Source: Streptomyces venezuelae
Lineage (GTDB): Bacteria; Actinomycetota; Actinomycetes; Streptomycetales; Streptomycetaceae
Assembly: GCF_008642315.1 (NCBI RefSeq)
Contig: NZ_CP029192.1
Location: 8,878,079-8,942,078 of the forward strand
Length of the DNA stretch: 64,000 bases
Direction: 5' to 3'
A program made the translations under genes and the position numbers. Below, piece by piece: positions 41,844 to 61,106 of this stretch. Below the pieces are notes generated by a model. That model did not search any database, was not told the DNA's origin, and worked only from the letters and a program-made list of their open reading frames with translations. Position 1 is the first letter of the stretch, and the number at the start of each line of letters is the position of its first letter.

Positions 41844-42386
41844 ATGCACATGCGAACTGAGGCCGCCAAGAGGGTCGAGCTGGTCTTCTCGCTCTTCGAC
41901 GCCAACGGCAACGGAGTCATCGAATCCGACGACTTCGACCTGATGACGGGCCGGGTCCTGGCGGCGGCGTCCGCTTCGGACGACGGTGCCAAGGAAGCCA
42001 TTCGGGCCGCGTTCCGCCGCTACTGGACGACGTTGGCCGCCGAACTGGACGCCAATGGGGACGGTGTGATCACGGTGGACGAGTTCAGGCCGTTCGTGCT
42101 CGATTCGCGGCGTTTCGGACCCACGATCGCCGAGTTCGCCGAAGCCCTCTCCGCACTCGGTGACCCCGACGGGGACGGCCTGATCGAGCGCCCCCTCTTC
42201 GTCTCGCTGATGAGGGCGATCGGCTTCGAGGAGGCGAACATCCACGCCCTCTTCGACGCCTTCGGTCCGGACGCCGAGGACCGCATCACCGTGTCCACGT
42301 GGGCCACCGGCATCGTGGAGTACTACGCGCCGGACATGGCGGGGATCCCGGGCGACGAACTGGTGGCCCCGCGCGCCGTCGCCTGA
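41844..42386 (+). CDS. EF-hand calcium-binding protein (calmodulin-like)
   Basis: A 180-residue protein with EF-hand loops. DANGNGVIESDD (residues 19-30) and DANGDGVITVDE are canonical 12-residue calcium loops, and DPDGDGLIERPL is a third with a non-acidic last position; a fourth (DAFGPDAEDRITVS) is degenerate. The pattern is that of Streptomyces calerythrin/CabC-like proteins, which buffer or sense calcium, including during aerial growth. The ATG at 41844 has AGAGGA six bases upstream; ATG at 41850 is an alternative. No partner gene is adjacent. The upstream AT-rich repeat region suggests regulated expression. Confidence 0.92.
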   Translation: MHMRTEAAKRVELVFSLFDANGNGVIESDDFDLMTGRVLAAASASDDGAKEAIRAAFRRYWTTLAAELDANGDGVITVDEFRPFVLDSRRFGPTIAEFAEALSALGDPDGDGLIERPLFVSLMRAIGFEEANIHALFDAFGPDAEDRITVSTWATGIVEYYAPDMAGIPGDELVAPRAVA

Positions 42387-42438: not shown

Positions 42439-43470
42439 TCAAGGCCGCGGCTTGTGGGCGAAGACCCATCGGTTCCCCTCCAACGCGTCGTTCGGCTCGG
42501 GGAGGGGGCCGCGCCCGTGCCGCAGGGTGAAGTCGAACGGCGTGTGCATCGAGGCCGACCAGCCGCCGGCCGTCAGATCGCCCACGGAGTCCGGCCGTGG
42601 CCCCTTGTCGAAGAGGTGGAGCAGGTCGATGCCGATCTGCTCCCGCGTCGACGCATAGATGGGGCTGTCGCGGTAGGCAAGCAGGTCCTTCTCCAACTTC
42701 GCCTCGAAGGCCAGCGCGCTGCCTTCGGCGGCGAGCCTGGCCACGCTGTCGATGAGGTACGTCTCGACGGGACCCGGCAGGTAGAAGAGGAGCCCCTCGG
42801 CCAGCCACACGCTCGGCGCGGCGGGGTCGAATCCGGCGGTCTTCAGCGCACCGACCCAGTCCGCGCGCAGGTCGACGGGTACGGGGATGCGCTTCACCCT
42901 CGGCACGGCCGACAGACCCGACAGCACCCGTTGCTTGAAGTCCAGCACGCCCGCCCTGTCCAACTCGTGCACGACACAGTCGGACGGCAGGTCGAGCCGG
43001 AACGCCCGGGTGTCCAACCCGGCGCCCAGCAACACCACTTGGCGGGCGCCCGCGGTGACCGAGTGCAGCAGGAAGTCGTCGAGGACCCTCGTCCGCAGAC
43101 CGAAGTAGCGGGCGAACCGTCCCCACAGCGGGTCGTCGTCGCCCGCCGGGACCTGCTCGATACGCACCGGCCAGTCGGCGCAGGCAGGGGCCGCGCGTAC
43201 GAAGTGTTCCGCGTAGACGTCCCGGGCCAGGCTGTCGTGGCGGCGGGTCTCGATCGCCCGTGCCGCGGCGACCAGGAGGGCGGTCAGGCCCACGCCTCCG
43301 TCGACGCCGTCCACGTCAGTGTGCTGAAGCGTAGTTCCGGCCATGCGTCCTCCGTCGGCGGGTGCGGTGGGTGTGGTGAGCGTGATGGGTGCGGTGAGTG
43401 TCGGGTGTATGGCATGTATGGGGAGCGCGGTGTGTGTGAGCGGTGGGGCTGGTACGGGGTGATCGCTCAT
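42439..43470 (-). CDS. LCM-type SAM-dependent methyltransferase (TIGR00027 family)
   Basis: A 343-residue protein of the PPM/leucine-carboxyl-methyltransferase-like family common in actinobacteria. It shows ARDVYAEHFVRA, FGLRTRVLDDFLL, QVVLLGAGLDTRAFRL (SAM motif I), the acidic HELDRAGVLDFKQRVL and VWLAEGLLFYLPG. Members methylate carboxylates or hydroxyls. The ATG at 43470 overlaps the stop of the alcohol dehydrogenase (ATGA), so the two are coupled. A roughly 40-residue Thr/Pro/His-rich lead (THTALPIHAIHPTLTAP) precedes the fold, so translation might alternatively start at MAGTTLQHTD. It probably modifies the product of the MfnB/dehydrogenase pathway. Confidence 0.87.
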   Translation of the reverse strand: MSDHPVPAPPLTHTALPIHAIHPTLTAPITLTTPTAPADGGRMAGTTLQHTDVDGVDGGVGLTALLVAAARAIETRRHDSLARDVYAEHFVRAAPACADWPVRIEQVPAGDDDPLWGRFARYFGLRTRVLDDFLLHSVTAGARQVVLLGAGLDTRAFRLDLPSDCVVHELDRAGVLDFKQRVLSGLSAVPRVKRIPVPVDLRADWVGALKTAGFDPAAPSVWLAEGLLFYLPGPVETYLIDSVARLAAEGSALAFEAKLEKDLLAYRDSPIYASTREQIGIDLLHLFDKGPRPDSVGDLTAGGWSASMHTPFDFTLRHGRGPLPEPNDALEGNRWVFAHKPRP

Positions 43471-44579
43471 CGGCCGGTCCTCTCCGGGAGCAGGACCGGC
43501 TTGACCACACGGCCCGCTGCGCAGTCGCGTTCGGCCTCGTTGACGCCGGCCAGCGGGTAGGGGCGGATCAGCTGGTCGAAGGGGAAGCACCCGGCCTGCC
43601 ACAGCGCGATCAGCCGGGGGATCAGCACACCGGGCACGGCGTCCCCCTCGCAGATGTGGCGGATGCCGCGGCCCCGGTCGAGCGTGCCCGGTTCGAGGGA
43701 CAGCGGGGCGCGGAGGCGTGCCACCAGGCCGAGGGTGCCCATGGGGCGCAGGGCGTGCAGCGCGTTGTTGATGAGCGGCGGCGCAGCCGTCGTGTCGAGC
43801 GCGTACCGTGCCCCGCCGTCGGTCAGGGAGCGGATTCGTCCGTGCAGATCAGGGGAGGCGGCGTGCAGCGGTGTGGCGCCGAACCGCTCGGCCAGGGTGA
43901 GCCGTTCAGGGTGCCGGTCGACGGCGAGGACCGCCGCGCCGACCGCCGTGGCCGCCATCACCGCGGCCAGGCCGACGGCCCCCGCGCCGAGGACGACGAG
44001 CGTGTCGCCGGGCCCCGCACCGAAGGTGTTCAGGACGGCTCCGGCGCCGGTGAGGAAACCGCAGCCGAGTGGCCCGAGCAGTTCGAGCGGCAGTGCGGGG
44101 TCGACTCGTACGGCGTTACGGACCGGAACGAGTGCGTACTCGGCGAACGAGGACTGCCCGAACCACCGGGGCGCCAGCGCCTCGCCGGCCGCGTCGGTGA
44201 GCCGCGGCGGTTGCTCCTCGCGGCCGCCGAAGAGGTTGAGGGAAGCGAAGGAGTCGCAGTAGGCGGGGGCGGCGCCACGACAGTTCGGACAGTGTCCGCA
44301 GGAGTCGAAGCTCAGCACGACGTGGTCACCCACGTCGATCGCGGCGGCCGGACCGCCCGACGCCTGGACGACGACGCCGGCGCCCTCGTGGCCGAGGACG
44401 GCCGGCAGCGGGCTTCGCCCACCGGATCCGCGTACCGCGAGATCGGTCCCGCACATCCCGGTGCCCGCGATCTCGACCAGGATCTCGCCCTCGGCGGGCT
44501 CGGTCCGCAGAACCACTTCCTCGACCGTGAACGGACTATCGTACGAGCGCAGCACGGCCGCCTGGAACTTCACTGTCAT
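43467..44579 (-). CDS. Zinc-dependent alcohol dehydrogenase (MDR family)
   Basis: A 370-residue medium-chain dehydrogenase. The catalytic zinc site is in GTGMCGTDLAVRG and VLGHEGAGVVV, the structural zinc lobe is CGHCPNCRGAAPAYC, and the NAD(P) loop is VVLGAGAVGLAAVMAA with DRHPERL after strand 2. The arrangement resembles aryl-alcohol dehydrogenases. It lies 160 bases downstream of the MfnB-like gene and overlaps the methyltransferase gene, so a role in interconverting a furan aldehyde and alcohol is attractive, though unproven. Zinc ligands appear complete, so it should be active. Confidence 0.92.
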   Translation of the reverse strand: MTVKFQAAVLRSYDSPFTVEEVVLRTEPAEGEILVEIAGTGMCGTDLAVRGSGGRSPLPAVLGHEGAGVVVQASGGPAAAIDVGDHVVLSFDSCGHCPNCRGAAPAYCDSFASLNLFGGREEQPPRLTDAAGEALAPRWFGQSSFAEYALVPVRNAVRVDPALPLELLGPLGCGFLTGAGAVLNTFGAGPGDTLVVLGAGAVGLAAVMAATAVGAAVLAVDRHPERLTLAERFGATPLHAASPDLHGRIRSLTDGGARYALDTTAAPPLINNALHALRPMGTLGLVARLRAPLSLEPGTLDRGRGIRHICEGDAVPGVLIPRLIALWQAGCFPFDQLIRPYPLAGVNEAERDCAAGRVVKPVLLPERTGR

Positions 44580-44606
44580 GCCTCCCGCGGGTCGGTGAAC
44601 GACGAA

Positions 44607-44670
44607 GGGCCGATGGGCGAATGGGCCGATGGACCGATGGACCGACGGGGGATGGGCGGATGGGCCGGGG
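44607..44670. repeat. Octamer-like minisatellite between mfnB-like and dehydrogenase genes
   Basis: Imperfect copies of gggccgat / ggaccgat / gggcgaat fill the 160-base spacer before the dehydrogenase start. It lies in the leader of the dehydrogenase and may affect coupling of the two genes. Confidence 0.55.
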
Positions 44671-44739
44671 TAAAGGGGCTGCAACCCAGTCCCTGCGGTG
44701 TGGCGGGCCGCGGCACACGGACGAGGCCCGCGGCGGCGG

Positions 44740-45498
44740 TCAGCGCGCGGAGGGGACGCCGACGGTGTACTCCTGCGCGTGCTGGTCCATCTCCGCACGG
44801 AAGGCGGCCACGAGATGGGGACGAATCCTTCCTGCATTGCGGTCGCCGCCCTCGCAGACCGCGCCCCGCACGCCCACGATGTCCGTGCCGATGCGGGTCA
44901 ACGGGCCGAGGTCGGCCCGCGTGACACTGCCCGCGAGGGCCGCGCGCAGCCCGGACGCGTGGGCCAGCCGGACGAACTCGGCGCAGATGTCCGGTGGAAC
45001 ATGGTCGAACAACCGCGACCCGTCCTTGACGGCGGTGTCGAGCATGGCCGCGTCGGCGCCCGATCGGGCGGCGATGTCGGGCACGGCGAGCGGATTGACA
45101 CAGCCGATCCTGTGGGCATCCGCGTAGCCCGAGGCGACGACGAGCGCGTCCGGCCGGTAGTCCTTCACGGCCCGGACGACGGCGCGCATGACCTCGACAC
45201 CCTGGGCGGGCGTCGTACATCCATAGAGGCCGACCTTGATGTACGTGGCCCCCGAGACGACGGCGCCGAGCGCCGCCTGGGCCACCGTGCCAGGCTTGTA
45301 CGGGACATCTCCCACGGTCGCGGACACCGGTTTGTCCGCCGGGACGGCGTCGCGGATCTCCCGGATGACCCAGGGAAAGTTCGCGCCGAGCGAGCCCTCG
45401 TCGGGCTTCTTCACGTCGACGATGTCGAGATGCTCCGCCGCCTTCGTGCATTCGAGAGCTTCCTCGACACTGTCCGGGGAGATGAGAAGTAACACCAT
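44740..45498 (-). CDS. mfnB: (5-formylfuran-3-yl)methyl phosphate synthase (MfnB-like)
   Basis: A 252-residue TIM-barrel protein matching MfnB, which condenses two glyceraldehyde-3-phosphate molecules to 4-(hydroxymethyl)-2-furaldehyde phosphate, the furan precursor of methanofuran. Key residues align with the archaeal enzyme shifted by three: Asp28 and Lys30 in [18 protein letters not shown] and the Schiff-base Lys158 in [16 protein letters not shown]. Other blocks are [13 protein letters not shown] and YIKVGLYG. Streptomyces do not make methanofuran, so this probably feeds a furan secondary metabolite. The ATG start at 45498 is clear. It heads a probable operon with a zinc dehydrogenase and an LCM-type methyltransferase. 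Confidence 0.93.
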
Positions 45499-45868
45499 GA
45501 CCTCCTTGAGCCGCCCGTTGTCGGCGCGGCTCCTGGTTCGGTTGCGGTGCGTTCATCATTCACGTCACCCCGGGAGACGGGGAGGCGCACAAAGTACCCA
45601 TTGGGTGCTTGAGGCTACGTTCGGTGCGCCGTGCACACCGGTGCGACTGGCCCCATCGGCAACGTGCGACCCGCCCGGACGGGGCGCGGCGCGGCGAGCT
45701 CCGTCCGGGGGGCGGGGGGCACACACGCCGAGCGGGGCGCGCGCGCTGAACACGCCACCCGGGTTCACCCCTAAGCGCCCCCTGCAGCAATGAAACCGAC
45801 CAACCGCCAGGGGCTTCCTTCTTGAAACGCTCGGTTCTACGCGAGACGAGGGATTCGGAGGGGGCGAC
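45499..45868. other. Divergent promoter region, mfnB-like operon and NACHT gene
   Basis: A 370-base non-coding stretch. A small palindrome ACCCATTGGGT lies at 45596-45606, and the DNA around 45590-45625 is AT-richer, a plausible promoter for the mfnB-like operon. GGAGGGGG just before 45869 is the ribosome site of the NACHT gene. Confidence 0.5.
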
Positions 45869-48800
45869 ATGCGGGGGCGGGAGGTCTGGACGCGGCGCAG
45901 GCTGTGGGTCGGCGTCGGCTGTGCCGCGCTGATCGTGCTGGCCGTCACGCTCCGCCGGGTCGTGGGGGAGCAGGGTGAACAAGCGCAGTACGACGGCCCC
46001 GCGTTCCTCGTGTCCGTGGTGGGCGTCATGGTGTCCGTCGCGGCACTGCTCGTCGACATCCTGCGTCGGCCCGACACGGCCCCGGAACCCGGTGTCCTGC
46101 TGCGGCAGACCGCTGACGCGCTCGCCGAGGCGGTACGGGTCCAATGGGCGCAGGAAGCGCGGCTGCGGCGGTTGCAGGATCCGACACCGCTCAACGTCCG
46201 CTGGAGGTGGGCCGACCGGCTGCTCGCGGACGACACACGGAACATCCGGCGCGGTCGCCCGGCGCCGGATCCCCGGCCGGCCGACAACTGTCTGGCATCG
46301 ATCGCCACCGCCTTCGAGGAGGTGCCGTCCAGGCGCATGGTCGTGCTCGGAAGCCCCGGTTCGGGCAAGAGCGTGCTTGCGGTGTGCTGCACGCTCGACC
46401 TTCTGAGGGAGCGTACGTCCGGCACGGCGGTACCCGTGATCTTCCCTCTGGCGGCCTGGGGTCCGGGCACCACCTCGCTGCGTGCCTGGCTCATCGAGTG
46501 GCTCGTGGCGGAGTACCGGCCGCTGGCGGCCACCACCGACGGCACGGTACTGGCCGAGGCGCTGCTCGACGCCGGGCTGATCGCGCCTGTCCTCGACGGT
46601 TTCGACGAACTGCCCCCGGCGTTGTACGGCACCGCGATGCGCAGGCTCAACGCCGAGTTGGACGACGGCATGCCGGTGCTCGTCACCTCGCGGACCACCG
46701 CCTGGCGCTCCGCGGTCGCGTGCAGCGACGTGCTCACCGGCGCGGAAGTCCTTGAGCTGCTGCCGCTGGAGTTCGCCGAGGCGAAGTCGTATCTGGAGCG
46801 CACCGCACGTCCGTTGCGGGGGCCCGACGGTCGCCGTACGACGGTGTGGACCCCGGTCCTCGACTCCCTGGGGGAGGACTCGCGCAGCCCGGCACTGGAC
46901 GCCTCTCAGCGGGGTTCGCGGACCTCGGGTCTTGACTCGCCGCAGCAGGGCTCGCGCACCTCGGCAGGCGGTGCGCTCCTGCAGATCCTCAGCAACCCGC
47001 TCATGGTGACCCTGGCGCGCACGGTGTACGGCGATGCGTCCCGCGACCCTCAAGAGCTCCTCGACGACCCCCGTTTCGCGACGACGGCCGAGATCGAGGA
47101 GCACCTCCTGGACGTGTTCGTACCGGTCGCGTTCGGCGACGGGGCTGTTGATTCACGGTGCGATCCGCGGTGCGATTCACGGTGGCGTGCCGCGGACGCC
47201 GGACGCTGGCTTGCGTGGCTGGCGCGCGAGTTGGAGCGGCGGGACTCCAAGCGGCTCGCCTGGTGGGAGCTGTATCTCTGCGTGCCGCGAGTGCTGCGCC
47301 TTGTGGCGCCCGCCCTGCTCGCGCAGGCGCTCACGTTCGTGCTGGCCGTCCCCATCCTGCTCTCCAGTGTCGGAGGCGACGTCTTCGTCTTCGACGACAA
47401 GCCGTCGCTGGCAGCCAATCTGGTCGGCAACCTGGTCGGATTCGCCGGTGGCCTTGCTTTGCTCCTGCCTGTGTCGGTGGCGGGGCGCGGTGGTGGCCCT
47501 GCCCTTCCCCGGCGCGTGTCGGTGGCGCGGCGCGAAGGGCGTACGGCCCTGAACCGGCAGCTCACGGTCTGCATGGCGACGGCCGCCGCGGCCACCCTCG
47601 GGTACGGACTCACCGGAGGCTCCGTGCAGTTCGGGTTGCAGTTCGGCACGGTCACGGACGGCTGGGCGGCCGAGCTGTTCGGGGGCGCGGTCTTCGGCGT
47701 ACTCATCGCCTTGTATTTCGGGGTCGCGGGGCTGGCCCGCCATGCGGTGCCGCTCGGGCTGCCCTGGGCGGGCAGCCCGAGCGGCCGGCTCGCGGCACGG
47801 GCCGGGAGTGGCCTCCTAGCCTTGGCCGGGCTCGTCATGGTCGAACCGTGGCTGCTCGGGCGCGGCCTCGGTACGTGGCCGACGGTGGCCGGGGCCCTGT
47901 GCTTCGCGGCGGCCCTGTGCCTGTGGGTGGCGGCGGGTCGCACCGGGGCGCGTACGGGCGTTTCCCACGCTCACACCAGTGAGGGTCGCATCGCCCGGCG
48001 TTTCGTGACCGGGCTCGTGCACGGCTGGGCTGTGTGCCTGCTTGTCGGAGTGGCTGCGGGCGGAACGGTGGGTGCCGTCGCCTGCGCGTTCTCCGCGGTG
48101 GAGACATCGAGGGCGCCCGATCTGGACGGCGAGCGGCTCGGGGAGTGGGCGCACCGGGAGACACCGGACGGCGTCCGTACCGTCGAGTCCTCGACGGAGA
48201 TCGCGGTCATCCTGGTGTACCCGCACGGGGGCGCCCGGCCGACGGCCTATCCGCACGGCAGCCGTCCGCCGAGTTGCGGCCGGAAGTGCGCATCGTTCGA
48301 CACACCGGTGACCTTCCGCGTCGCCCAGGGCGACCTGCGCGTACTCGTCGACGGCAGTACCGCGGCCAACGCGGTGAACATGCTGCCGGAGCTCCCCGAG
48401 CAGTCCCGGATCTGGCTCGCCCAGAGTGCCGCCAGGCACCCGCTCGACCGGTTCCTGCTGCCCGGTGCCATGGGCGGAGTCCTGATCGCGCTGATCGGCG
48501 GCCCGGCGTCGGGCCTCTACCGTGCGCTGAGCACCCCCTCCGACCTGATCCGGGCAGCCAACCCGCAAGTCACCCTGCGAACGGACCGCATGGCGTCGCT
48601 GTCCCGTTCCGGAGTCGTGGCGGTCATGACGGGCGGGGTGTGTGTCGTCCTGGCCTGGGCGTTCGCGTCGCGGGGCGGGCTCGACCACGTCGCGGCGCAG
48701 ATGTGGGTCCCGATGGGTACCGCCGCACTCGCGCTCACCGCGTGGGGACAACTGGCCGTTGCCCGTGCCTGGTTGGCGCTGACGGGGCGGCTGCCCTGGC

Positions 48801-48955
48801 GGATCATGACGTTCCTCGACGAGGCGCATCGCAGAGGGGTGCTGCGGCAGTCCGGCGCCCATTACGAGTTCCGTCACTTGCGTATGCAGCAGCGACTTGC
48901 TTCGTCCGCCGAGGAGTCGCGGGACGGGGATCGGGTTGCGGTGCCGATTGATTGA
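45869..48955 (+). CDS. NACHT-type STAND ATPase with N- and C-terminal membrane helices
   Basis: A 1028-residue protein. Two N-terminal helices (LWVGVGCAALIVLAVTL, FLVSVVGVMVSVAALLVDI) are followed by a NACHT NTPase: Walker A VVLGSPGSGKSVLAV (about 158-172), Walker B VLDGFDELPPAL (about 241) and the sensor-like VLVTSRTTAWRS. A repeat-like insert (SQRGSRTSGLDSPQQGSRTS, about 350) precedes the helical part. Roughly eight more membrane helices occupy residues 475-780 and 840-960. NACHT proteins oligomerise on ligand binding; some bacterial ones are anti-phage sensors, others are uncharacterised Streptomyces membrane proteins like this. It is alone, without an obvious effector domain other than the membrane part. 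Confidence 0.88.
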   Translation: MRGREVWTRRRLWVGVGCAALIVLAVTLRRVVGEQGEQAQYDGPAFLVSVVGVMVSVAALLVDILRRPDTAPEPGVLLRQTADALAEAVRVQWAQEARLRRLQDPTPLNVRWRWADRLLADDTRNIRRGRPAPDPRPADNCLASIATAFEEVPSRRMVVLGSPGSGKSVLAVCCTLDLLRERTSGTAVPVIFPLAAWGPGTTSLRAWLIEWLVAEYRPLAATTDGTVLAEALLDAGLIAPVLDGFDELPPALYGTAMRRLNAELDDGMPVLVTSRTTAWRSAVACSDVLTGAEVLELLPLEFAEAKSYLERTARPLRGPDGRRTTVWTPVLDSLGEDSRSPALDASQRGSRTSGLDSPQQGSRTSAGGALLQILSNPLMVTLARTVYGDASRDPQELLDDPRFATTAEIEEHLLDVFVPVAFGDGAVDSRCDPRCDSRWRAADAGRWLAWLARELERRDSKRLAWWELYLCVPRVLRLVAPALLAQALTFVLAVPILLSSVGGDVFVFDDKPSLAANLVGNLVGFAGGLALLLPVSVAGRGGGPALPRRVSVARREGRTALNRQLTVCMATAAAATLGYGLTGGSVQFGLQFGTVTDGWAAELFGGAVFGVLIALYFGVAGLARHAVPLGLPWAGSPSGRLAARAGSGLLALAGLVMVEPWLLGRGLGTWPTVAGALCFAAALCLWVAAGRTGARTGVSHAHTSEGRIARRFVTGLVHGWAVCLLVGVAAGGTVGAVACAFSAVETSRAPDLDGERLGEWAHRETPDGVRTVESSTEIAVILVYPHGGARPTAYPHGSRPPSCGRKCASFDTPVTFRVAQGDLRVLVDGSTAANAVNMLPELPEQSRIWLAQSAARHPLDRFLLPGAMGGVLIALIGGPASGLYRALSTPSDLIRAANPQVTLRTDRMASLSRSGVVAVMTGGVCVVLAWAFASRGGLDHVAAQMWVPMGTAALALTAWGQLAVARAWLALTGRLPWRIMTFLDEAHRRGVLRQSGAHYEFRHLRMQQRLASSAEESRDGDRVAVPID

Positions 48956-51539: not shown

Positions 51540-51883
51540 GCACCACCCGTAAGTCCGACAGGTCGCTGCGGGAGAGAGCCCGTACGACTGGTTAGCCCAT
51601 AGCGAGAGGGCTGAGTCCGGGCCGGTGGTGCCGGTGGCCGTGCTGGTGGCTGGTGCCGTTGTGTCCTGTTTGGTGTGGGTATATGGCTGTTTGGGTTCTT
51701 GAGGTGTGCTTGAGGGTGGGTGGGGGTGGGTGGGGGGTGTGGTTGAGGGTGGGTGGAAACCAGCTGCGCGGTTTTGTATTGACAGGGGTGGGGGGACCGG
51801 TTTGAATCTGGGTGCGGTTTCGGGGTTCGGCTGGGGGCGTGGTAGGTGCGTTCCGGGGGCCGGTGGTGGTGTGGGGGGGCGTT
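51540..51883 (+). other. G/T-rich leader of the first SARP gene with strong G-quadruplex motif
   Basis: A 344-base spacer that becomes strongly G/T-rich from about 51660. At 51714-51737 the coding strand has five G runs (3,3,5,3,6) separated by single T bases, an exceptionally compact quadruplex pattern, and another partial set follows to 51756. The motif ends about 147 bases before the GTG start of the SARP gene. Confidence 0.6.
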
Positions 51884-53389
51884 GTGGAGATTGAGGTGTT
51901 GGGCGCGCTGGCGGTGCGGGTGGGTGGGTGTTCGGTGGTGCCGTCGGCTCCTAAGCCGCGGCAGGTGTTGGCGTTGTTGGCGTTGCATGTGGACCGGATG
52001 GTGCCGGTGTCGGTGTTGGCGCGGGAGTTGTGGGGGGTGGCTCCGCCGCGGAGTGCGCGGACGACGTTGCAGACGTATGTGTTGCAGTTGCGGGAGTTGA
52101 TCGGGGCGGCGTTGGAGCGGGGGGGTGTGGGGGGTGGGCGTCGGGGTGCCAAGGAGGTGTTGGTGACGATGCCGGGTGGGTATCGGTTGTGTGGTGGTGG
52201 GGGTGGTAGTGATGTGCGGGTTTTTGAGGAGTTGGCGGGGGCTGGTTATCGGGCGATGGATGTAGGGGATTGTGCGGGGGCGGCGGAGCGGCTGGGTCGG
52301 GCGCTGGCGTTGTGGTCGGGTACGGCTTTTGCGGATGTGCAGGCGGGTCCGCAGTTGCAGATGGAGATCAAGCGGCTGGATGAGAGCCGGTTGTGTGCGT
52401 TGGACCGGCGGATCGAGGCGGATCTGCGGCTGGGTCGTCATCGGGAGTTGCTGGCGGAGTTGACGGTGCTGGTCAATGGTTATCGTGCGCATGAGAGTCT
52501 GCATGCGCAGTACATGCTTGCGTTGCATCGTTCGGGCCGGCGGGGGGAGGCGTTGGATGCCTATCAGCGGTTGCGGGCCACGCTGGTGGGGGAGTTGGGT
52601 CTGGAGCCCTCGGCGCGGTTGCGGCGTCTGCAGCGTTTGATCCTGACCGCGGGCCACGACCTTGCCGCTCCCGTCCCCGTCCCGCCTGTTGCCGCTGCCG
52701 GCGGCCCTGCCCCTGCCCCCGTTCCGCCCGCCGCCGCTCCGCCTGGTGTTCCCGCCGGCGCCCCTGCTTCTGTCCCGCCCGCTGCCTCCGTGCCGTCTGG
52801 TGTTCCCGTGGGTGCGGCCGCTTCCGGTGTGCGGGGGGTGTCTGCTGCTCCTTCCCCCTCTGCCGCTCCGGTGGCCCCCGCGGCGCCCGCGGCTGAGGCG
52901 GCGTCTGCCGCTGCGGCGGTTCCCGCGGCGTCTGCTGCTGCGGGGGTTTCCGCGGTGTCTGCTGTCGCGGGGGTTTCTGTGGTGTCGGCTGCTGCGGCCG
53001 TTTCCGTGGTGGCTGCTGCTGAGGCTGTGTCTGCTGCCCCGTCGGGTCTCGTGGTGGCTGGCGCTCCTGCCGCGTCTGCTGCTCCGGCCGCTTCCGTGGT
53101 GGCTGCTGCTGAGGTTGCGTCTGCTGCTCCGGCCGCTTCCGCGGTGTCGGCCGCTGCGGGGGTTCCGGCGGTTTCCGCGGTGCCTGCGGCTGCGGTCGTG
53201 TCGGCTGTTCCGGCCGCCGTTTCGGCGGCTTGTGCTGCTTCGGCCGTTGCCGTTCCGGCGGTGTCTGCTGCTGCGGTGGCTCCGGTTGTGCCGGTGGCGT
53301 CGGCTGTTTGTGGTGTTCCTGGTGTTCCGGCTGTTCCGGCTGTTTGTGGTGTTCCGGTTGTTCCGGTGCGGTGGGTGTCCACCGGCTAG
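51884..53389 (+). CDS. SARP-family activator with very long Ala/Val/Pro-rich tail
   Basis: A 501-residue protein from the GTG at 51884. Residues 1-255 are a complete SARP: winged helix (VEIEVLGALAVRVGG, KPRQVLALLALHVDRM, TTLQTYVLQLRELIG) and BTAD domain (FEELAGAGYRAMDVGDC to ARLRRLQRL). SARPs bind heptameric direct repeats and activate antibiotic genes. After about residue 262 the frame continues for roughly 240 residues of almost pure Ala, Val, Pro and Ser (VSAVSAVAGVSVVSAAAAVS type), unlike any SARP known to me. Codon third positions stay G/T- and C-rich. A related SARP follows at 54085. The tail could be read-through of repeat DNA. Confidence 0.85.
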   Translation: MEIEVLGALAVRVGGCSVVPSAPKPRQVLALLALHVDRMVPVSVLARELWGVAPPRSARTTLQTYVLQLRELIGAALERGGVGGGRRGAKEVLVTMPGGYRLCGGGGGSDVRVFEELAGAGYRAMDVGDCAGAAERLGRALALWSGTAFADVQAGPQLQMEIKRLDESRLCALDRRIEADLRLGRHRELLAELTVLVNGYRAHESLHAQYMLALHRSGRRGEALDAYQRLRATLVGELGLEPSARLRRLQRLILTAGHDLAAPVPVPPVAAAGGPAPAPVPPAAAPPGVPAGAPASVPPAASVPSGVPVGAAASGVRGVSAAPSPSAAPVAPAAPAAEAASAAAAVPAASAAAGVSAVSAVAGVSVVSAAAAVSVVAAAEAVSAAPSGLVVAGAPAASAAPAASVVAAAEVASAAPAASAVSAAAGVPAVSAVPAAAVVSAVPAAVSAACAASAVAVPAVSAAAVAPVVPVASAVCGVPGVPAVPAVCGVPVVPVRWVSTG

Positions 53390-54084
53390 TGTCCCGCCCG
53401 GTGGGCGGGCTGGGCCTCCGGTGTGGCCCGGGGGTGTTGTCCGGGCCGGGGTCCGGGGTGGGGTTTCGGTGTCTGTTTCTGTTTCTCCTTCCGTGTACTT
53501 GCCCGTCTGCTGTGAGTTCCGTGAAGGGGCGGGCGGGGTGTGCCGGTGGAGGCGTGTGCCGCCCCCGGGCCGGCCGCGCCGTGCTCGAGTGCACCACTTC
53601 GTATCACCGCGTCGTACGACCGCGTACTACTACGTACCACCGCTTCGTACTGCTACGTACCACTGCTTCGTACTTCTACGTACCACCGTGTACTGCTATG
53701 TACCACTGTGTGCTGCTAGGTGTCGTCTGTGTGTGAGTGTCGGCCGGTGTGTCCCACCGTCGTGGTCGTGTACCGCAGTTGGGCACTGTTTTGGACGTGT
53801 GGATCCAAGGGAGCGTGAGGGGGGGCTGTGGGGGTGTGCGGCAACGTTTCCTTGCCGGCCGTGCGGATTTCATCCCGGGCCAGGTGTTCCTGGCCGGTGC
53901 CGCCTACCGTGCAACACGCCTCTGTGCAGTTGTCTTTGACGTCGTGTCAGCCCGGTGCGGGTGCGGGTTCGTGTGTGGGGGGTTTGTTGCGGCGAGAGGA
54001 GGGTGCGCTGGGTTGGTGAGGGAGGACGTCCGCGGCGACGGAATGCAGTCAAGACAAGAACTCGACGAAGTACGGAGATAACCC
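53390..54084. other. Spacer between the two SARP genes
   Basis: A 695-base region without a convincing gene; open frames here have poor coding character. It contains the tacgtaccac repeat array at 53631-53716 and continues the unusual G/T-rich composition up to about 53560. The last 70 bases hold the leader of the second SARP gene, with a weak gagat site before its ATG. Confidence 0.55.
53631..53716 (+). repeat. Tandem tacgtaccac repeats upstream of the second SARP gene
   Basis: Four units begin at 53631, 53654, 53677 and 53697, with spacings of 23, 23 and 20 bases. Each has tacgtaccac (tatgtaccac in the last) plus ctgc/cttc tails. Spacing near two helical turns invites a role as a regulator array. 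Confidence 0.65.
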
Positions 54085-54906
54085 ATGAAGATTCAGGTTC
54101 TGGGTCCGTTGAGCGCCGAGGTCAACGGGGGATCGATTGTTCCGACGGCACGCAAGCCGCGGCAGATCTTGTCCCTTTTTGCCCTCTATCCCGGGCAGGT
54201 CATGTCCGTGCCCACGCTCATGGAGGAGCTGTGGGGCACTGAACCGCCTCAGAGTGCGCTGACCACCCTGCAGACCTACATTCTCCAGTTGCGCCGGCAT
54301 CTGGGTACTGCGCTGGGGCCGGACAGGCCCGGCACGGCTAAGGAGGTCCTGGCCACCCGGCACGGCGGGTATCTGATGCAGATACCGGCCGAGGGGGTGG
54401 ACGTGCATGAGTACGACCGGCTGGCGGCCGAGGGCCGTGCGGCTTTCGAGGACGGTGATGACGGCCGGGCCGCTGATCACTTCCGCCGGGCGCTGGCGCT
54501 GTGGCGCGGGCCGGCGCTGGTGGATGTGCGGGTGGGTCCCATCCTGGAGATCGAGGTCATGCGTCTGGAGGAGTCGCGGCTGGGCACGGTGGAGCGGCGT
54601 ATCGATGCCGACCTGCGGCTGGGCCGGCACTCCGGGCTGATTGCCGAGCTCACCGAGCTGACCGCCCGTTATCCCCAGCATGAGGGGCTGCACTCGCAGG
54701 CGATGGTGGCGCTCTACCGGTCCGGGCGGCAGGCCTCGGCGCTGGAGATCTACCGCAAGCTGCGGATCCGCATGATCGAGGGACTGGGGGTGGAGCCCTC
54801 TCCGCAGGTGCAGCGGCTGCATCAGGCGATGCTGGCCGTCGATCCGCAGCTGGATGTCACCGCCGGGCCCCGGCGCACCTCCACCTTCGATCTCTACGCC
54901 GCCTGA
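54085..54906 (+). CDS. SARP-family pathway-specific activator
   Basis: A 273-residue SARP of normal length. The winged helix (MKIQVLGPLSAEVNGGS, KPRQILSLFALYPGQV, TTLQTYILQLRRHLG) is followed by the BTAD domain (DVHEYDRLAAEGRAAFEDG to PSPQVQRLHQAMLAVDPQ). SARPs such as ActII-ORF4 and DnrI switch on aromatic polyketide and other antibiotic clusters. It is a paralogue of the SARP at 51884 but without the tail, and it is followed at once by a perfect 19-bp hairpin. Likely targets are the aromatase/cyclase, rppA and downstream genes. Confidence 0.94.
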   Translation: MKIQVLGPLSAEVNGGSIVPTARKPRQILSLFALYPGQVMSVPTLMEELWGTEPPQSALTTLQTYILQLRRHLGTALGPDRPGTAKEVLATRHGGYLMQIPAEGVDVHEYDRLAAEGRAAFEDGDDGRAADHFRRALALWRGPALVDVRVGPILEIEVMRLEESRLGTVERRIDADLRLGRHSGLIAELTELTARYPQHEGLHSQAMVALYRSGRQASALEIYRKLRIRMIEGLGVEPSPQVQRLHQAMLAVDPQLDVTAGPRRTSTFDLYAA

Positions 54907-54912
54907 CCCACC

Positions 54913-54959
54913 CCCTGCCCCGCCCCCGCACGGCAGTGTCGTGCGGGGGCGGGGCAGGG
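54913..54959 (+). terminator. Strong intrinsic terminator hairpin after the second SARP gene
   Basis: CCCTGCCCCGCCCCCGCAC (54913-54931) pairs perfectly with GTGCGGGGGCGGGGCAGGG (54941-54959) across a 9-base loop, beginning 7 bases after the stop. The 19-bp GC stem should be extremely stable. Confidence 0.85.
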
Positions 54960-55210
54960 CAGGGGCGGTGCGGGGCGGGGGAGCGGCGGCAACCGCACTG
55001 CACCGCACTGGGCCGCACTGCACCGCACTGCACTGGGCCGCACTGCACTGGGCCGCTCTGCGCTGTGGTGCGAACGGGGCGGGGGCGGTGCACGTATCCG
55101 TCCCCGCCCCCGGCCGGCTTGTGCCCCGGCTCGGTCTGCTCCGGAGCGGCCCGGCCCGCCCGGTGCGGCCTGTTCCGGGGCCGCCGGTCCTGCCCGGTGC
55201 GGGTCGCTCC

Positions 55211-55327
55211 GGTGTTGTGGGACCGGTCCTGCCTGGTGCGGCCTGCTCCGGTGTTGTGGGACCGGTCCTGCCTGGTGCGGCCTGCTCCGGTGTTGTGGGA
55301 CCGGTCCTGCCTGGTGCGGTCTGCTTT
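55211..55327. repeat. Three tandem 39-bp units
   Basis: Units starting at 55211, 55250 and 55289 begin ggtgttgtgggaccgg and end ctgctcc (ctgcttt in the last). The first two are identical over 39 bases and the third diverges only near its end, implying recent tandem duplication. Confidence 0.85.
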
Positions 55328-56395
55328 GGTGCTGCCCATCCGACCCGGGCCCGGCCAGTTTTGGCGCGCCCTGTTCCGGGGCGGCCGGTCCTGCCCGGTG
55401 CGGGTTGCTCCGGCGTGGCTGGTCCTGCCCGGTGCGGGTTGCTCCGGCGTGGCTGGTCCTGCTTGGTGTGGCCTGCTCCCGTGTTGGCTGGTCCGGCTTG
55501 GTGCGGTCGGGCCGGGGTGGGCTCGGTCTCGTTCCTGGTGTGGGCGGTTCTGCCTGGGCGCGGCCGGTCGCTCTGGTGCGGTCTGCGTCGGGACGGCCAA
55601 ACCTGCCTGATGGGGCCTGCTTCGGGGTGCCGGTGCGGCCGGTCGCTCCGGTGCGGGTTGCTCCGGTGTGGCTGGTCCTGCCTGGTGTGGTCTGCTCCCG
55701 TGTCGGCCGGTCCGGCTTGGTGCGGTCGGGCCGGGGTGGGCCCGGTCTCGTTCCTGGTGGTCAGTTCTGCGGGGGCACGGCCGGTCCTCCGGTGCGGTCT
55801 GTGTCGGGGCGGCCGCTCTTGCGTGATGCGTGCTGGTCCGGGGCTGCTCGGTGCGGTCTGTGTCGGGGCGGCCGGTCGTGTGTGATGCGTGCTGGTCCGG
55901 GGCGGCCGGCACCTGCGGTGTGGTCTGTGCCGGGAGGAGCGGGCCTGCCTGATGCGGGTTGTTCCGGTGCCCCATCCCATCCCATCCCGTCCCGTCCCGT
56001 CCCGTCCCGTTTCGGCGTGCCGGTCCGGCTCCGTCCCCGGCGTGTTTTGGTGTGGCCTGCGCCGGGGCGGCCGGCTTGTTTGGTGGTCTGCTCCGGTTGG
56101 GTCGGTGCTGCCCGGGGCGGGCCGGGCCGGGGCGGGTCCGGCCTGCTTCGGTGCGGTCAGTGCCCCTCTGCCCTGGCCGGTTCTGCTGCGCACGCCCGGT
56201 CCCGGCTGCTCTTGTCCCGGCGTGGCCCGGCCTGGTCCGGCTCGGCGCGGGCGCTCTGGTCCGGTCCGGTGCCGCGTGGTGCGTGATGGTCCCCGGGGGT
56301 GTGGTGCAGTGCGGGGCGGTTCCGGGTGGTGCGGTGCGGTGTCGGGTGGTGCGGGGCGGGGTGGTGCCGCGTGGTGCGGGGCGGTGGCGGGTGTC

Positions 56396-56441
56396 GGGTG
56401 GGTGGGGGGGTGTGGTTTCGCGGGGTGTGGGGTGGGGGTGG
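56396..56441 (+). other. G-quadruplex-type motifs upstream of the aromatase/cyclase
   Basis: G3-T-G3-T-G7 at 56396-56410, followed by g4-tgt-g4-t-g5 from about 56422, on the coding strand, ending about 155 bases before the GTG of the cyclase gene. The pattern echoes that before the first SARP gene. Confidence 0.55.
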
Positions 56442-56596
56442 TGGGCCGAGGTGGACTCGAGCCGGGTGCGGGCGGGTGTCGAGCGGGCCGGGGCAGTGTG
56501 GAGTGGACCGCCACCGGCCGTATGCCGGGACCGCTGTCCCGCGCCGAACACGTGTGGGGCCGGGGGAGTCCGCGCGGGAGGAGACAGGGGACCGCG

Positions 56597-57553
56597 GTGA
56601 CCGGGGAGCGCATCCAGCAGCTGGCGCACGCGGTCGAGGTGGCCGCGCCCGCGCACGTCGTCTACGCGTTGATCGCCGATCCGGAACGGTGGCCGCTGTT
56701 TTTGCCGCGGATCCTGCACGCCCAGCGTCTGGACTTCGACGGTGTCCGTGAACGGCTGCGGATGTGGGCGCTGGCCGAGGGGCAGGTCACCGCTTGGACC
56801 TGCGTACGGGTGCAGGACCTGTCCCGCCGGCGGATCGCCTTCCGTCAGGACCAGCCGATGGAGGCGGCCGCCTCGATGGCCGGGGTGTGGCAGGTGGAGG
56901 AACGGGCGCCGGGCCGCTGCCGGCTGACCCTCACCCACGAGTTCAGCGCCGCGCGCGGACGGCTCCAGGACGAGGCCTGGCTGGGCGAAGTCGTCACCGC
57001 CAACAGCCACTCCGCGCTGCGCAGCCTGCGGTTGCTGGCCGAACAGGGGCCCCGCCTGGACCGGCTGGCGCTCTCCTTCGCCGAGTCCATCCGCCTCAAA
57101 GGGCCCGCCGAACTCGTCTACCACTTCCTCTACGACGTCTGCGCCTGGCCCGGCCGGCTCGCCCATGTGCGCCGGGCCGTGCTGGAAGAGCCCCGCCCGG
57201 GCATCCAGAAGGTCGCCCTGGACCTGGCCGCGGCCGACGGCAGCACTCCCACCGTGGCCGGTTTCCGTATCTGTTTCCCGCACGCCGGACGCATCGTGCA
57301 CAAGGCGACCGTGCCCCGCCCGTTGCTCGCCGCGCACTGCGGCGAGTGGTCGGTGCTGCCCGATGAGAGCGGCGTCACCGTGCTGTGCCAGCACCACGCC
57401 CTGTTGCGCGAGGACACCATCGAGCAGGTCCTGGGCCCCGGCGCGGACCTGGCCCGGGCCCACCGCGAGGTCCGCGCCGCCCTCACCCGCGAAACCCGCC
57501 AGATCCTGCGCCTGGCCCGCCACCACGCCGAATCCTCCATCCGCACCCTGTAA
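56597..57553 (+). CDS. Didomain polyketide aromatase/cyclase (SRPBCC)
   Basis: A 318-residue protein with two START-like (SRPBCC) halves. The first has VEVAAPAHVVYALIADPERWP and RERLRMWALAEGQVTAW; the second has IRLKGPAELVYHFLYDVCAWPG and GIQKVALDLAAADGS. This is the didomain aromatase/cyclase layout (ActVII-like) of type II polyketide clusters, where it closes and aromatises the first ring. The GTG at 56597 was chosen because the first domain begins right after; upstream frame is repeat DNA. No type II ketosynthase is in the window. Its nearness to a type III synthase (rppA) raises the possibility of another naphthalene-modifying role. Confidence 0.9.
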   Translation: MTGERIQQLAHAVEVAAPAHVVYALIADPERWPLFLPRILHAQRLDFDGVRERLRMWALAEGQVTAWTCVRVQDLSRRRIAFRQDQPMEAAASMAGVWQVEERAPGRCRLTLTHEFSAARGRLQDEAWLGEVVTANSHSALRSLRLLAEQGPRLDRLALSFAESIRLKGPAELVYHFLYDVCAWPGRLAHVRRAVLEEPRPGIQKVALDLAAADGSTPTVAGFRICFPHAGRIVHKATVPRPLLAAHCGEWSVLPDESGVTVLCQHHALLREDTIEQVLGPGADLARAHREVRAALTRETRQILRLARHHAESSIRTL

Positions 57554-59919: not shown

Positions 59920-61106
59920 ATGCCCAGGCTATGCAAGCCGTCGGTGCGTGTGCCGGAGAACGTCATCACGGCCGAAGAGACGCTGGAATTCGCCGAGCGG
60001 GTCCACGCCGGGAAGCCGCAGCTTCCCCTGGCCCTGCGGCTGATCCGCAACACGGGGGTGCTGAAGCGGCATATCGTCCAGCCCATCGAGCAGACCCTCA
60101 AACACCCGGGCCTGACCGAACGCAACCGCATCTACGAGGCCGAGTCGAAAAAGCGCACCCCCGAGGTCGTCGAGGAAGCCCTGGCCAACGCCGAGGTCGA
60201 CGCCCGCGACATCGACGCGATCATCTACGTGTCGTGCACCGGGTTCCTCATGCCCTCGTGACGGCCTGGCTCATCAACAAGATGGGCTTTCGCTCCGACA
60301 CCCGCCAGATCCCCATCGCCCAGCTGGGCTGCGCGGCCGGCGGCGCCGCCATCAACCGGGCCCACGACTTCTGCCTGGCCCACCCCGGCAGCAACGTCCT
60401 GATCGTCTCCTGCGAGCTGTGCTCGCTGTGCTACCAGCCCGACATGGACGACATCGGCTCCCTGCTGTCCGACGGACTGTTCGGCGACGCGGTCGCGGCC
60501 GCCGTGGTCCGCGGCCGCGGCGGCACCGGCATCGAACTGGAGAGCAACTCCTCCTACCTCATCCCCCACACCGAGGACTGGATCTCCTACTCGGTGCGCG
60601 ACACCGGCTTCCACTTCCAGCTGGACCGCCGGGTGCCGGGCACCATGGAGCCGCTCGCCCCGGTGCTGCGCGAGTTCGCCGCCGGCCACCGGTGGGACGC
60701 CTCCAACCTCGACTTCTACATCATCCACGCCGGCGGCCCGCGCATCCTCAACGACCTGGCCAAGTTCCTGGACGTGGACCGCAAGGTCTTCCGCCACAGC
60801 TGGTCGACGCTGACCGAGTACGGCAACATCGCCAGCGCCGTCGTCCTGGACGCCGCCCTGCGCCTGTTCGAAGAGGACACCCCGATGCCGGACGCCACCG
60901 GCCTGATCGCCGGCTTCGGCCCCGGCATCACCGCCGAGATGGCCCTGGGCCGCTGGAACAGCGACAGCCCGCCGCCGGCTGACCCGCCCGCCGCACCCGC
61001 CTGCCGGCCGATCCGTCACCGCCGGCGGCTGCCCCAGGGGCCTGCCTTCCGGCCCGCCACCGCGCCTGACGGCCGGCCGTCACCGCGCCCGGGCCGGGTC
61101 GCCTGA
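59920..61106 (+). pseudogene. rppA: RppA-type 1,3,6,8-tetrahydroxynaphthalene synthase (type III PKS), frameshifted as given
   Basis: The two frames together give a full RppA, a chalcone-synthase-fold enzyme making tetrahydroxynaphthalene from five malonyl-CoA. Frame one starts MPRLCKPSVRVPENVI and ends DAIIYVSCTGFLMPS. A one-base loss near 60258 (expected tcgctgacg, seen tcgtgacg) shifts to AWLINKMGFRSDTRQIPIAQ. The catalytic triad is intact: Cys in QLGCAAGGAAINRAHDFC, His in YIIHAGGPRILNDL, Asn in LTEYGNIASAVVLDA. Because everything else is conserved, the break may be a sequence error. The C-terminus is Pro-rich. It is followed by a MomA-like cupin, the classical partner that oxidises the product to flaviolin. 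Confidence 0.9.

What the first reader, a model, noticed from the sequence alone, without database searches (positions are those of the whole stretch)
42439..45498. MfnB-led furan pathway in a non-methanogen
MfnB makes 4-(hydroxymethyl)-2-furaldehyde phosphate for methanofuran, which Streptomyces lacks. Here it is followed by a zinc alcohol dehydrogenase and, coupled to that, an LCM-type methyltransferase. The three could convert glyceraldehyde phosphate into a methylated furan alcohol or acid, a plausible undescribed signal or metabolite. MfnC/MfnD-type partners are absent.
Basis: partly seen in the sequence, partly recalled or inferred. Interest (0 to 1): 0.75.

Follow-up and report, generated by a model that had tools for sequence, protein, structure and literature searches.

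The report
Streptomyces furan cassette missing one gene
Many Streptomyces carry a compact set of genes that starts from the furan-forming enzyme of methane-making archaea and probably makes a small methylated furan acid; the copy found here has lost one of its genes, and no product of the set is known.

Summary
The three genes are real and lie as described: an MfnB (60% identical to the M. jannaschii enzyme, catalytic residues kept), a benzyl-alcohol-type zinc dehydrogenase (ADH) and a TIGR00027/LCM methyltransferase (MT). But the trio is a degraded copy of a larger cassette. Across 142 distinct mfnB loci the usual order is mfnB - aldehyde dehydrogenase (ALDH) - ADH - MT, often with an EF-hand gene nearby; ALDH is intact in 128. 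Here it is deleted: about 33 nt of its 3' end remain just before ADH. Close ADH homologues occur in 52 of 53 MfnB+ genomes and 0 of 146 others. Flanks vary and copies occur on linear plasmids. Ten loci have lost ALDH (seven changes on a tree) while keeping mfnB, ADH and MT. The genome lacks MfnF and the methanofuran formyltransferase. Most likely route: two glyceraldehyde-3-phosphates to 4-HFC-P (MfnB), oxidation of the aldehyde and hydroxymethyl groups (ALDH, ADH), then carboxyl methylation, giving a methyl ester of a 2,4-substituted furoic acid. Everything after MfnB is inferred from family. The literature searches made here found no description of the pathway; S. coelicolor SCO6440 is called mfnB in one paper, so a tractable strain exists.

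The parts
44740..45498 (-). mfnB, (5-formylfuran-3-yl)methyl phosphate (4-HFC-P) synthase homologue, 252 aa; relatives start at the GTG one codon later
   Evidence: PF04476, NF002573; 60% identity to MJ1099, active-site residues invariant in 138 of 138 loci
44580..44739 (-). scar of the deleted aldehyde dehydrogenase gene; 44580-44612 matches the ALDH 3' end, 44603-44667 is an 8-nt tandem repeat
   Evidence: 29 of 32 aligned bases identical to the ALDH end of L081 plus one indel, ending at the ADH start in both; tandem repeat; the 11-residue protein match alone is not significant, E=0.81
43467..44579 (-). zinc-dependent alcohol dehydrogenase, aryl/benzyl-alcohol type, 370 aa
   Evidence: PF08240 and PF00107; nearest solved 5tnx, 1f8f; C43, H64, C94, C97, C100, C108, C173 conserved in 138 of 138 loci (their role as zinc ligands is recalled)
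42439..43344 (-). SAM-dependent methyltransferase (LCM / TIGR00027), 301 aa from the likely start at 43344; the open frame extends to 43470 and beyond
   Evidence: PF04072, TIGR00027; GGAGG before the ATG at 43344
41844..42386 (+). EF-hand protein, 180 aa, convergent with the methyltransferase; frequent companion of the cassette
   Evidence: PF13499; beside the cassette in 20 of 53, 47 of 83 and, in the second genus, 7 of 7 loci
45499..45620 (-). leader upstream of mfnB, conserved among Streptomyces loci, shortened here; probable promoter or operator
   Evidence: alignment of 141 upstream regions; no RNA fold and no conserved leader peptide

Best explanation
The locus is an ALDH-deleted copy of a conserved small-molecule cassette (mfnB-ALDH-ADH-MT, often with an EF-hand gene). 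SHOWN by sequence: gene content and order, co-occurrence, catalytic residues, absence of two methanofuran marker families from this genome, recurrent loss of ALDH alone. INFERRED: MfnB condenses two D-glyceraldehyde-3-phosphates into 4-(hydroxymethyl)-2-furancarboxaldehyde phosphate; the C2 aldehyde is oxidised to a carboxylate (by the cassette ALDH; in this strain by another of its ALDHs, or not at all); after removal of the phosphate by an enzyme outside the cassette, the aryl-alcohol-type ADH oxidises the 4-hydroxymethyl group; the methyltransferase esterifies the carboxylate. Expected product: a methyl ester of a 2,4-substituted furoic acid, such as methyl 4-hydroxymethyl- or 4-formyl-furan-2-carboxylate, or dimethyl furan-2,4-dicarboxylate. 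The EF-hand protein is probably an accessory of the methyltransferase, perhaps calcium-dependent.
For: Operon structure: mfnB-ALDH gap 10 nt or less in 35 of 48 loci, ALDH-ADH in 44 of 48. Linkage in 199 genus genomes: full-length MfnB in 53; ADH at E<=1e-100 in 52, all MfnB+; ALDH at E<=1e-150 in 46, all MfnB+; MT at 71% identity or more in the 53 MfnB+ genomes, and only 59-66% best paralogues in 12 MfnB- ones. Same genes and order in a second genus, 7 of 7 loci. MfnB residues invariant in 138 of 138 loci (roles of Lys27 and of two Lys plus two Asp from passages of PMC6604932; Lys155 and R217 from passages of PMC11365854). ADH nearest solved chains include benzyl alcohol dehydrogenase; ALDH nearest is 8yen (ALDH family protein), then phenylacetaldehyde dehydrogenase 4o5h; MT is in the leucine-carboxyl-methyltransferase family. 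No MfnF or formyltransferase in this genome. [quoted passage not shown]
Against: No phosphatase recurs in the flanks, so one step has no gene. Family does not fix the substrates of ADH, ALDH or MT, and the two solved MT relatives are titled only as putative methyltransferases. ALDH is deleted in 10 of 142 distinct loci while the rest is kept, which fits poorly with ALDH being essential to the product unless another ALDH takes over; this genome has 26 ALDH matches, best 48%. In one ALDH-less lineage dN/dS is raised (L169 against L184: ADH 0.61, MT 0.40, at low dS), which hints at decay there. The EF-hand-MT pair also exists without mfnB, so MT may not be dedicated to furans. The GC-MS match was made in methanol without a stated standard, and I do not know whether that strain carries the cassette.
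Confidence: 0.5

Rival explanations
1. Reductive branch: the ADH reduces the furan aldehyde to 2,4-bis(hydroxymethyl)furan or a related alcohol, and the methyltransferase acts on a hydroxyl or on another substrate. The ALDH is a side branch, which is why it can be lost.
For: ALDH alone is recurrently deleted, so mfnB, ADH and MT may suffice; zinc ADHs work in both directions (general knowledge).
Against: ALDH is intact in 128 of 142 distinct loci and tightly packed between mfnB and ADH; MT is in a carboxyl-methyltransferase family.
Confidence: 0.2
2. In this strain the cassette is a decaying remnant and makes nothing; the complete cassettes elsewhere are the functional form.
For: ALDH is deleted, the conserved leader is shortened, the locus lies about 18.5 kb from the chromosome end, and a polyketide synthase elsewhere in the window is broken.
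Against: mfnB, ADH and MT are open and keep their conserved residues; dN/dS against L081 is 0.10, 0.20 and 0.20, similar to pairs that keep ALDH, though most of that divergence may predate the loss.
Confidence: 0.25
3. Metabolic overflow or detoxification: the cassette drains triose phosphate or disposes of furan aldehydes, with no dedicated end product or signal.
For: ALDH and ADH are typical of aldehyde disposal; PMC6604932 (passages) describes such roles for ALDHs towards furfural and HMF derivatives.
Against: MfnB makes furan aldehydes rather than removing them, and a methyltransferase is not needed for disposal.
Confidence: 0.12
4. A methanofuran-like cofactor pathway.
For: MfnB is the first committed enzyme of that pathway.
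Against: No MfnF (TIGR03123) and no formyltransferase (PF01913) in this genome, with two control methanogens positive in each search; neighbours are oxidation and methylation genes.
Confidence: 0.03

Closest known systems
Archaeal methanofuran biosynthesis (MfnB, C, D, E, F)
   Same: First enzyme: 60% identity to M. jannaschii MfnB, active-site residues kept
   Different: No MfnF and no formyltransferase in this genome; followed by oxidation and methylation genes, not amination
Proteobacterial methylofuran cluster (Orf22, Orf21, Orf9, fhc genes)
   Same: Contains an MfnB homologue (PMC8141765 passages; Azospirillum L217)
   Different: Its MfnB is about 34-37% identical to this one in the Azospirillum plasmids listed and lies among C1-transfer genes
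Methylenomycin furan (AHFCA) signals of Streptomyces coelicolor
   Same: Small furan carboxylic acids in Streptomyces (PMC6604932 passages)
   [quoted passage not shown] alkyl chain at C2; no MfnB
EF-hand - TIGR00027 methyltransferase pair of Streptomyces (seen here; no name found)
   Same: EF-hand and MT 58-68% identical to those of the window in seven loci
   Different: No mfnB, ALDH or ADH of the cassette; in three loci an isocitrate-dehydrogenase-like and an isochorismatase-like gene lie between the two

Membership tests
MfnB / 4-HFC-P synthase (PF04476, NF002573) | Score above the curated cut-off over the whole length | tested here: met
   Pfam 265.3 bits against 22.4; NF002573 392.1 against 341
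MfnB / 4-HFC-P synthase (PF04476, NF002573) | Two lysines and two aspartates of the active site, Lys27 as Schiff base (D25, D151 and K85 numbering recalled) | tested here: met
   identical in 138 of 138 loci at D25, K27, K85, D151, K155, R217; by PMC6604932 these residues are shared with DERA, so they alone do not tell the two apart
MfnB / 4-HFC-P synthase (PF04476, NF002573) | Makes 4-HFC-P from D-glyceraldehyde-3-phosphate | not testable with these tools
   needs an enzyme assay
Methanofuran / methylofuran pathway | MfnF (TIGR03123) in the genome | tested here: not met
   0 matches in the window's genome; 2 of 14 control genomes, both methanogens, positive
Methanofuran / methylofuran pathway | Formylmethanofuran-H4MPT formyltransferase (PF01913) in the genome | tested here: not met
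   0 matches in the window's genome; the same two methanogens positive
Methanofuran / methylofuran pathway | MfnC, MfnD, MfnE | not tested
   not searched for; the families are broad
Streptomyces mfnB-ALDH-ADH-MT cassette (defined here) | mfnB, ADH and MT in this order on one strand | tested here: met
Streptomyces mfnB-ALDH-ADH-MT cassette (defined here) | ALDH between mfnB and ADH | tested here: not met
   absent in the window, 3' remnant only; best ALDH elsewhere in the genome 48%. It is a derived, incomplete copy.
Carboxyl O-methyltransferase (LCM) | Family profile | tested here: met
   PF04072 170.5 bits against 22.3; TIGR00027 239.3 against 93.55
Carboxyl O-methyltransferase (LCM) | Acts on a carboxylate | not testable with these tools
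   the two solved relatives are titled putative methyltransferases

The most novel reading that the evidence does not exclude
An MfnB taken over from archaea founded a new class of small, possibly volatile 2,4-substituted furan methyl esters made by about a quarter of Streptomyces species and acting as signals or antifungals; repeated loss of the ALDH gene, as in this strain, switches the product from ester/acid to aldehyde/alcohol forms and so diversifies the message.
Probability: 0.2. Interest if true: 0.85.

Novelty: new variant of a known kind. Interest (0 to 1): 0.62.

Why it matters
A furan-ring-forming enzyme known from methane metabolism heads a compact gene set in 53 of 199 sampled genomes of the genus, and a gene of S. 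coelicolor bears the name mfnB (PMC7581861 passage). If the inferred chemistry holds, these bacteria make 2,4-substituted furan acids and esters from triose phosphate in a few steps: an unrecognised natural-product class, and a biological route to 2,4-furandicarboxylate-type building blocks. One knockout and one LC-MS comparison would settle it.

Tried and rejected
Methanofuran pathway: disfavoured by absent MfnF and formyltransferase. Three-gene unit as the ancestral state: rejected, since ALDH is intact in 128 of 142 distinct loci and a remnant lies in the window. ALDH moved elsewhere in the genome: rejected. Structured leader RNA or leader peptide before mfnB: RNAalifold gave no fold (0.0 kcal/mol on 134 distinct leaders) and the upstream ATGATGA frame is not kept; Rfam gave no match at gathering threshold in the window. 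EF-hand as an obligatory member: not upheld; near the cassette in 20 of 53 and 47 of 83 loci; anywhere in the genome in 31 of 40 MfnB+ and 7 of 40 MfnB- genomes (my count from its table). A further conserved gene such as a phosphatase: none among the families shared by more than five loci. The ALDH remnant is modest on its own: protein match E=0.81, an ungapped DNA comparison did not single it out, and 16 of 1000 shuffles of the gap reach its score of 23.5 somewhere in the ALDH. It counts because it ends exactly at the ADH start, as the ALDH end does in relatives. No structure was predicted and no fold search was run.

Full report
WHAT IS THERE. The window is the last 64 kb of an 8.94-Mb single-contig genome. 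On the minus strand between 45498 and 42439 lie mfnB, a zinc alcohol dehydrogenase and a SAM methyltransferase. MfnB is identical to M. jannaschii MJ1099 at 138 of 229 aligned residues and passes the NCBIfam equivalog cut-off. Two distant genomes of the phylum have MfnB at 45% identity to it (L223, L224) and Azospirillum plasmids at about 34-37%. The closeness to an archaeal enzyme suggests transfer between domains; I infer this from identities alone, without a tree of archaeal sequences.

THE CASSETTE. PF04476 was found in 55 of 199 genomes of the genus, 53 of them full-length; the two weak partial hits (G080, G108) were set aside. I fetched regions of up to 20 kb for the 52 full-length loci other than the window and for the two weak hits, 20 further loci from the order search, 7 of them from a second genus, and the 80 best of 247 named matching loci, and read three plasmid loci. 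The order mfnB - ALDH - ADH - MT recurs while the flanks differ. MT is sometimes inverted or set apart (L033, L060, L075, L131, L216). After merging identical mfnB cores 156 loci became 142. ALDH is intact in 128, broken in 10 and absent in 4. Of these 14, two (L050, L078) are cut by contig ends, two (L037, L057) are split without loss of sequence, perhaps draft errors, and ten are deletions: window, L040, L053, L066, L149, L157, L169, L178, L180, L216. ADH is absent only in L050 and L078 and broken in L057 and L180; MT is absent in L050, L057, L078 and L167, all near contig ends, and broken in L135. Three ADH and three MT readings with one stop each were not examined further.

LINKAGE. In the same 199 genomes ADH at E<=1e-100 occurs in 52, all MfnB+; the missing one, G119, is frameshifted at a contig end. 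ALDH at E<=1e-150 occurs in 46, all MfnB+. MT at 71% identity or more occurs in the 53 MfnB+ genomes; 12 MfnB- genomes have best paralogues at 59-66%. These protein searches scored only the best 8-11 candidates in most genomes. MfnB was found in 64 of 293 genomes of the order, in two of nine genera; in 6 of 394 of the class, all of the own genus; and in 6 of 396 of the phylum, one below the cut-off. In the second genus all 7 fetched loci, which are all its hits, show EF-hand > mfnB > ALDH > ADH > MT on one strand. The named loci include Kitasatospora and Actinacidiphila besides Streptomyces. Linear plasmids of S. zaomyceticus and Streptomyces sp. SGAir0924 carry annotated mfnB, ALDH, ADH, MT and EF-hand genes; the pSCAT copy of Streptantibioticus cattleyicolor lacks ALDH and has MT inverted.

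THE LOST GENE. In the window 160 nt separate mfnB from ADH. The last 33 nt match the ALDH end of L081 at 29 of 32 positions plus one indel and end at the ADH start; an 8-nt tandem repeat overlaps and precedes them. The closest ALDH elsewhere in the genome is 48% identical. On a FastTree tree of 138 loci (MfnB+ADH+MT) the ten losses need seven changes. dN/dS of the window's mfnB, ADH and MT against L081 is 0.10, 0.20 and 0.20; four pairs that keep ALDH give 0.07-0.15, 0.17-0.33 and 0.16-0.32. Against this, the ALDH-less L169 compared with L184 gives 0.18, 0.61 and 0.40, at low dS. So ALDH is the part most often lost; whether another ALDH replaces it, the product changes or the locus decays cannot be told from sequence.

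THE BOOKENDS. The EF-hand and MT genes also form a module without mfnB: adjacent in L225, L229, L230 and L231, and with an isocitrate-dehydrogenase-like and an isochorismatase-like gene between them in L226, L227 and L233. L229 comes from G121, which also has the cassette elsewhere. L228 has EF-hand, isochorismatase-like gene and MT by the coordinates; L232 showed no EF-hand. Of the 12 regions, nine were chosen for the MT paralogue and three (L234-L236) for the EF-hand alone; these three had no MT in the listing. In the second genus the furan genes sit between EF-hand and MT in the same way, as if they were one of several inserts. This supports the view that the methyltransferase finishes a small acid.

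MECHANISM. MfnB chemistry is inferred from identity and residues: that two lysines and two aspartates are essential and Lys27 forms a Schiff base is from passages of PMC6604932; Lys155 and R217 from passages of PMC11365854. ALDH, ADH and MT substrates are inferred from family. A phosphatase must come from elsewhere. [quoted passage not shown] malaysiensis extract handled in methanol (PMC9131080 passages). That is weak evidence.

LITERATURE. Ten searches were made. I saw listings with abstract beginnings, and passages of PMC6604932, PMC11365854, PMC9131080, PMC7581861, PMC9088363 and PMC8141765; a term search in PMC5020050 returned no passage. Nothing seen describes this cassette. PMC7581861 calls S. 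coelicolor SCO6440 mfnB and lists it among up-regulated genes of its RNA-seq (passages). I did not see the genes next to SCO6440. Subscription papers and patents were not searched.

Noticed in passing
L225-L233: EF-hand plus TIGR00027 methyltransferase is a module in Streptomyces without mfnB; in three loci an Iso_dh-like and an isochorismatase-like gene sit between them. They look like bookends around different small-acid pathways.
   Followed up: partly
window 59920-61106: A type III polyketide synthase is split into two overlapping ORFs (59920-60261 and 60258-61106), apparently by a frameshift; only the second part hits Pfam.
   Followed up: partly
window 51812-57553: Two regulators with BTAD domains (51812-53389, 54085-54906) followed by a polyketide cyclase-like gene (56597-57553) near the chromosome end.
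   Followed up: no
window 45869-48955: Divergent from mfnB: a 1028-aa NACHT-domain protein, not shared with the other cassette loci.
   Followed up: no
L223: A distant genome of the phylum (G1051) has MfnB beside ORFs that read by eye like formylmethanofuran dehydrogenase subunits, a formyltransferase and MfnE/MfnF-like proteins, that is, a methanofuran setting; not checked with profiles.
   Followed up: partly
L044, L045, L056, L127, L130, L132: In six loci the cassette lies just downstream of genes that read by eye like an arabinose-utilisation operon.
   Followed up: no
window 45499-45620: A leader of about 120 nt before mfnB is well conserved among Streptomyces loci (core GGAAATGATGAGC) without RNA fold or leader peptide; function unknown.
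   Followed up: partly
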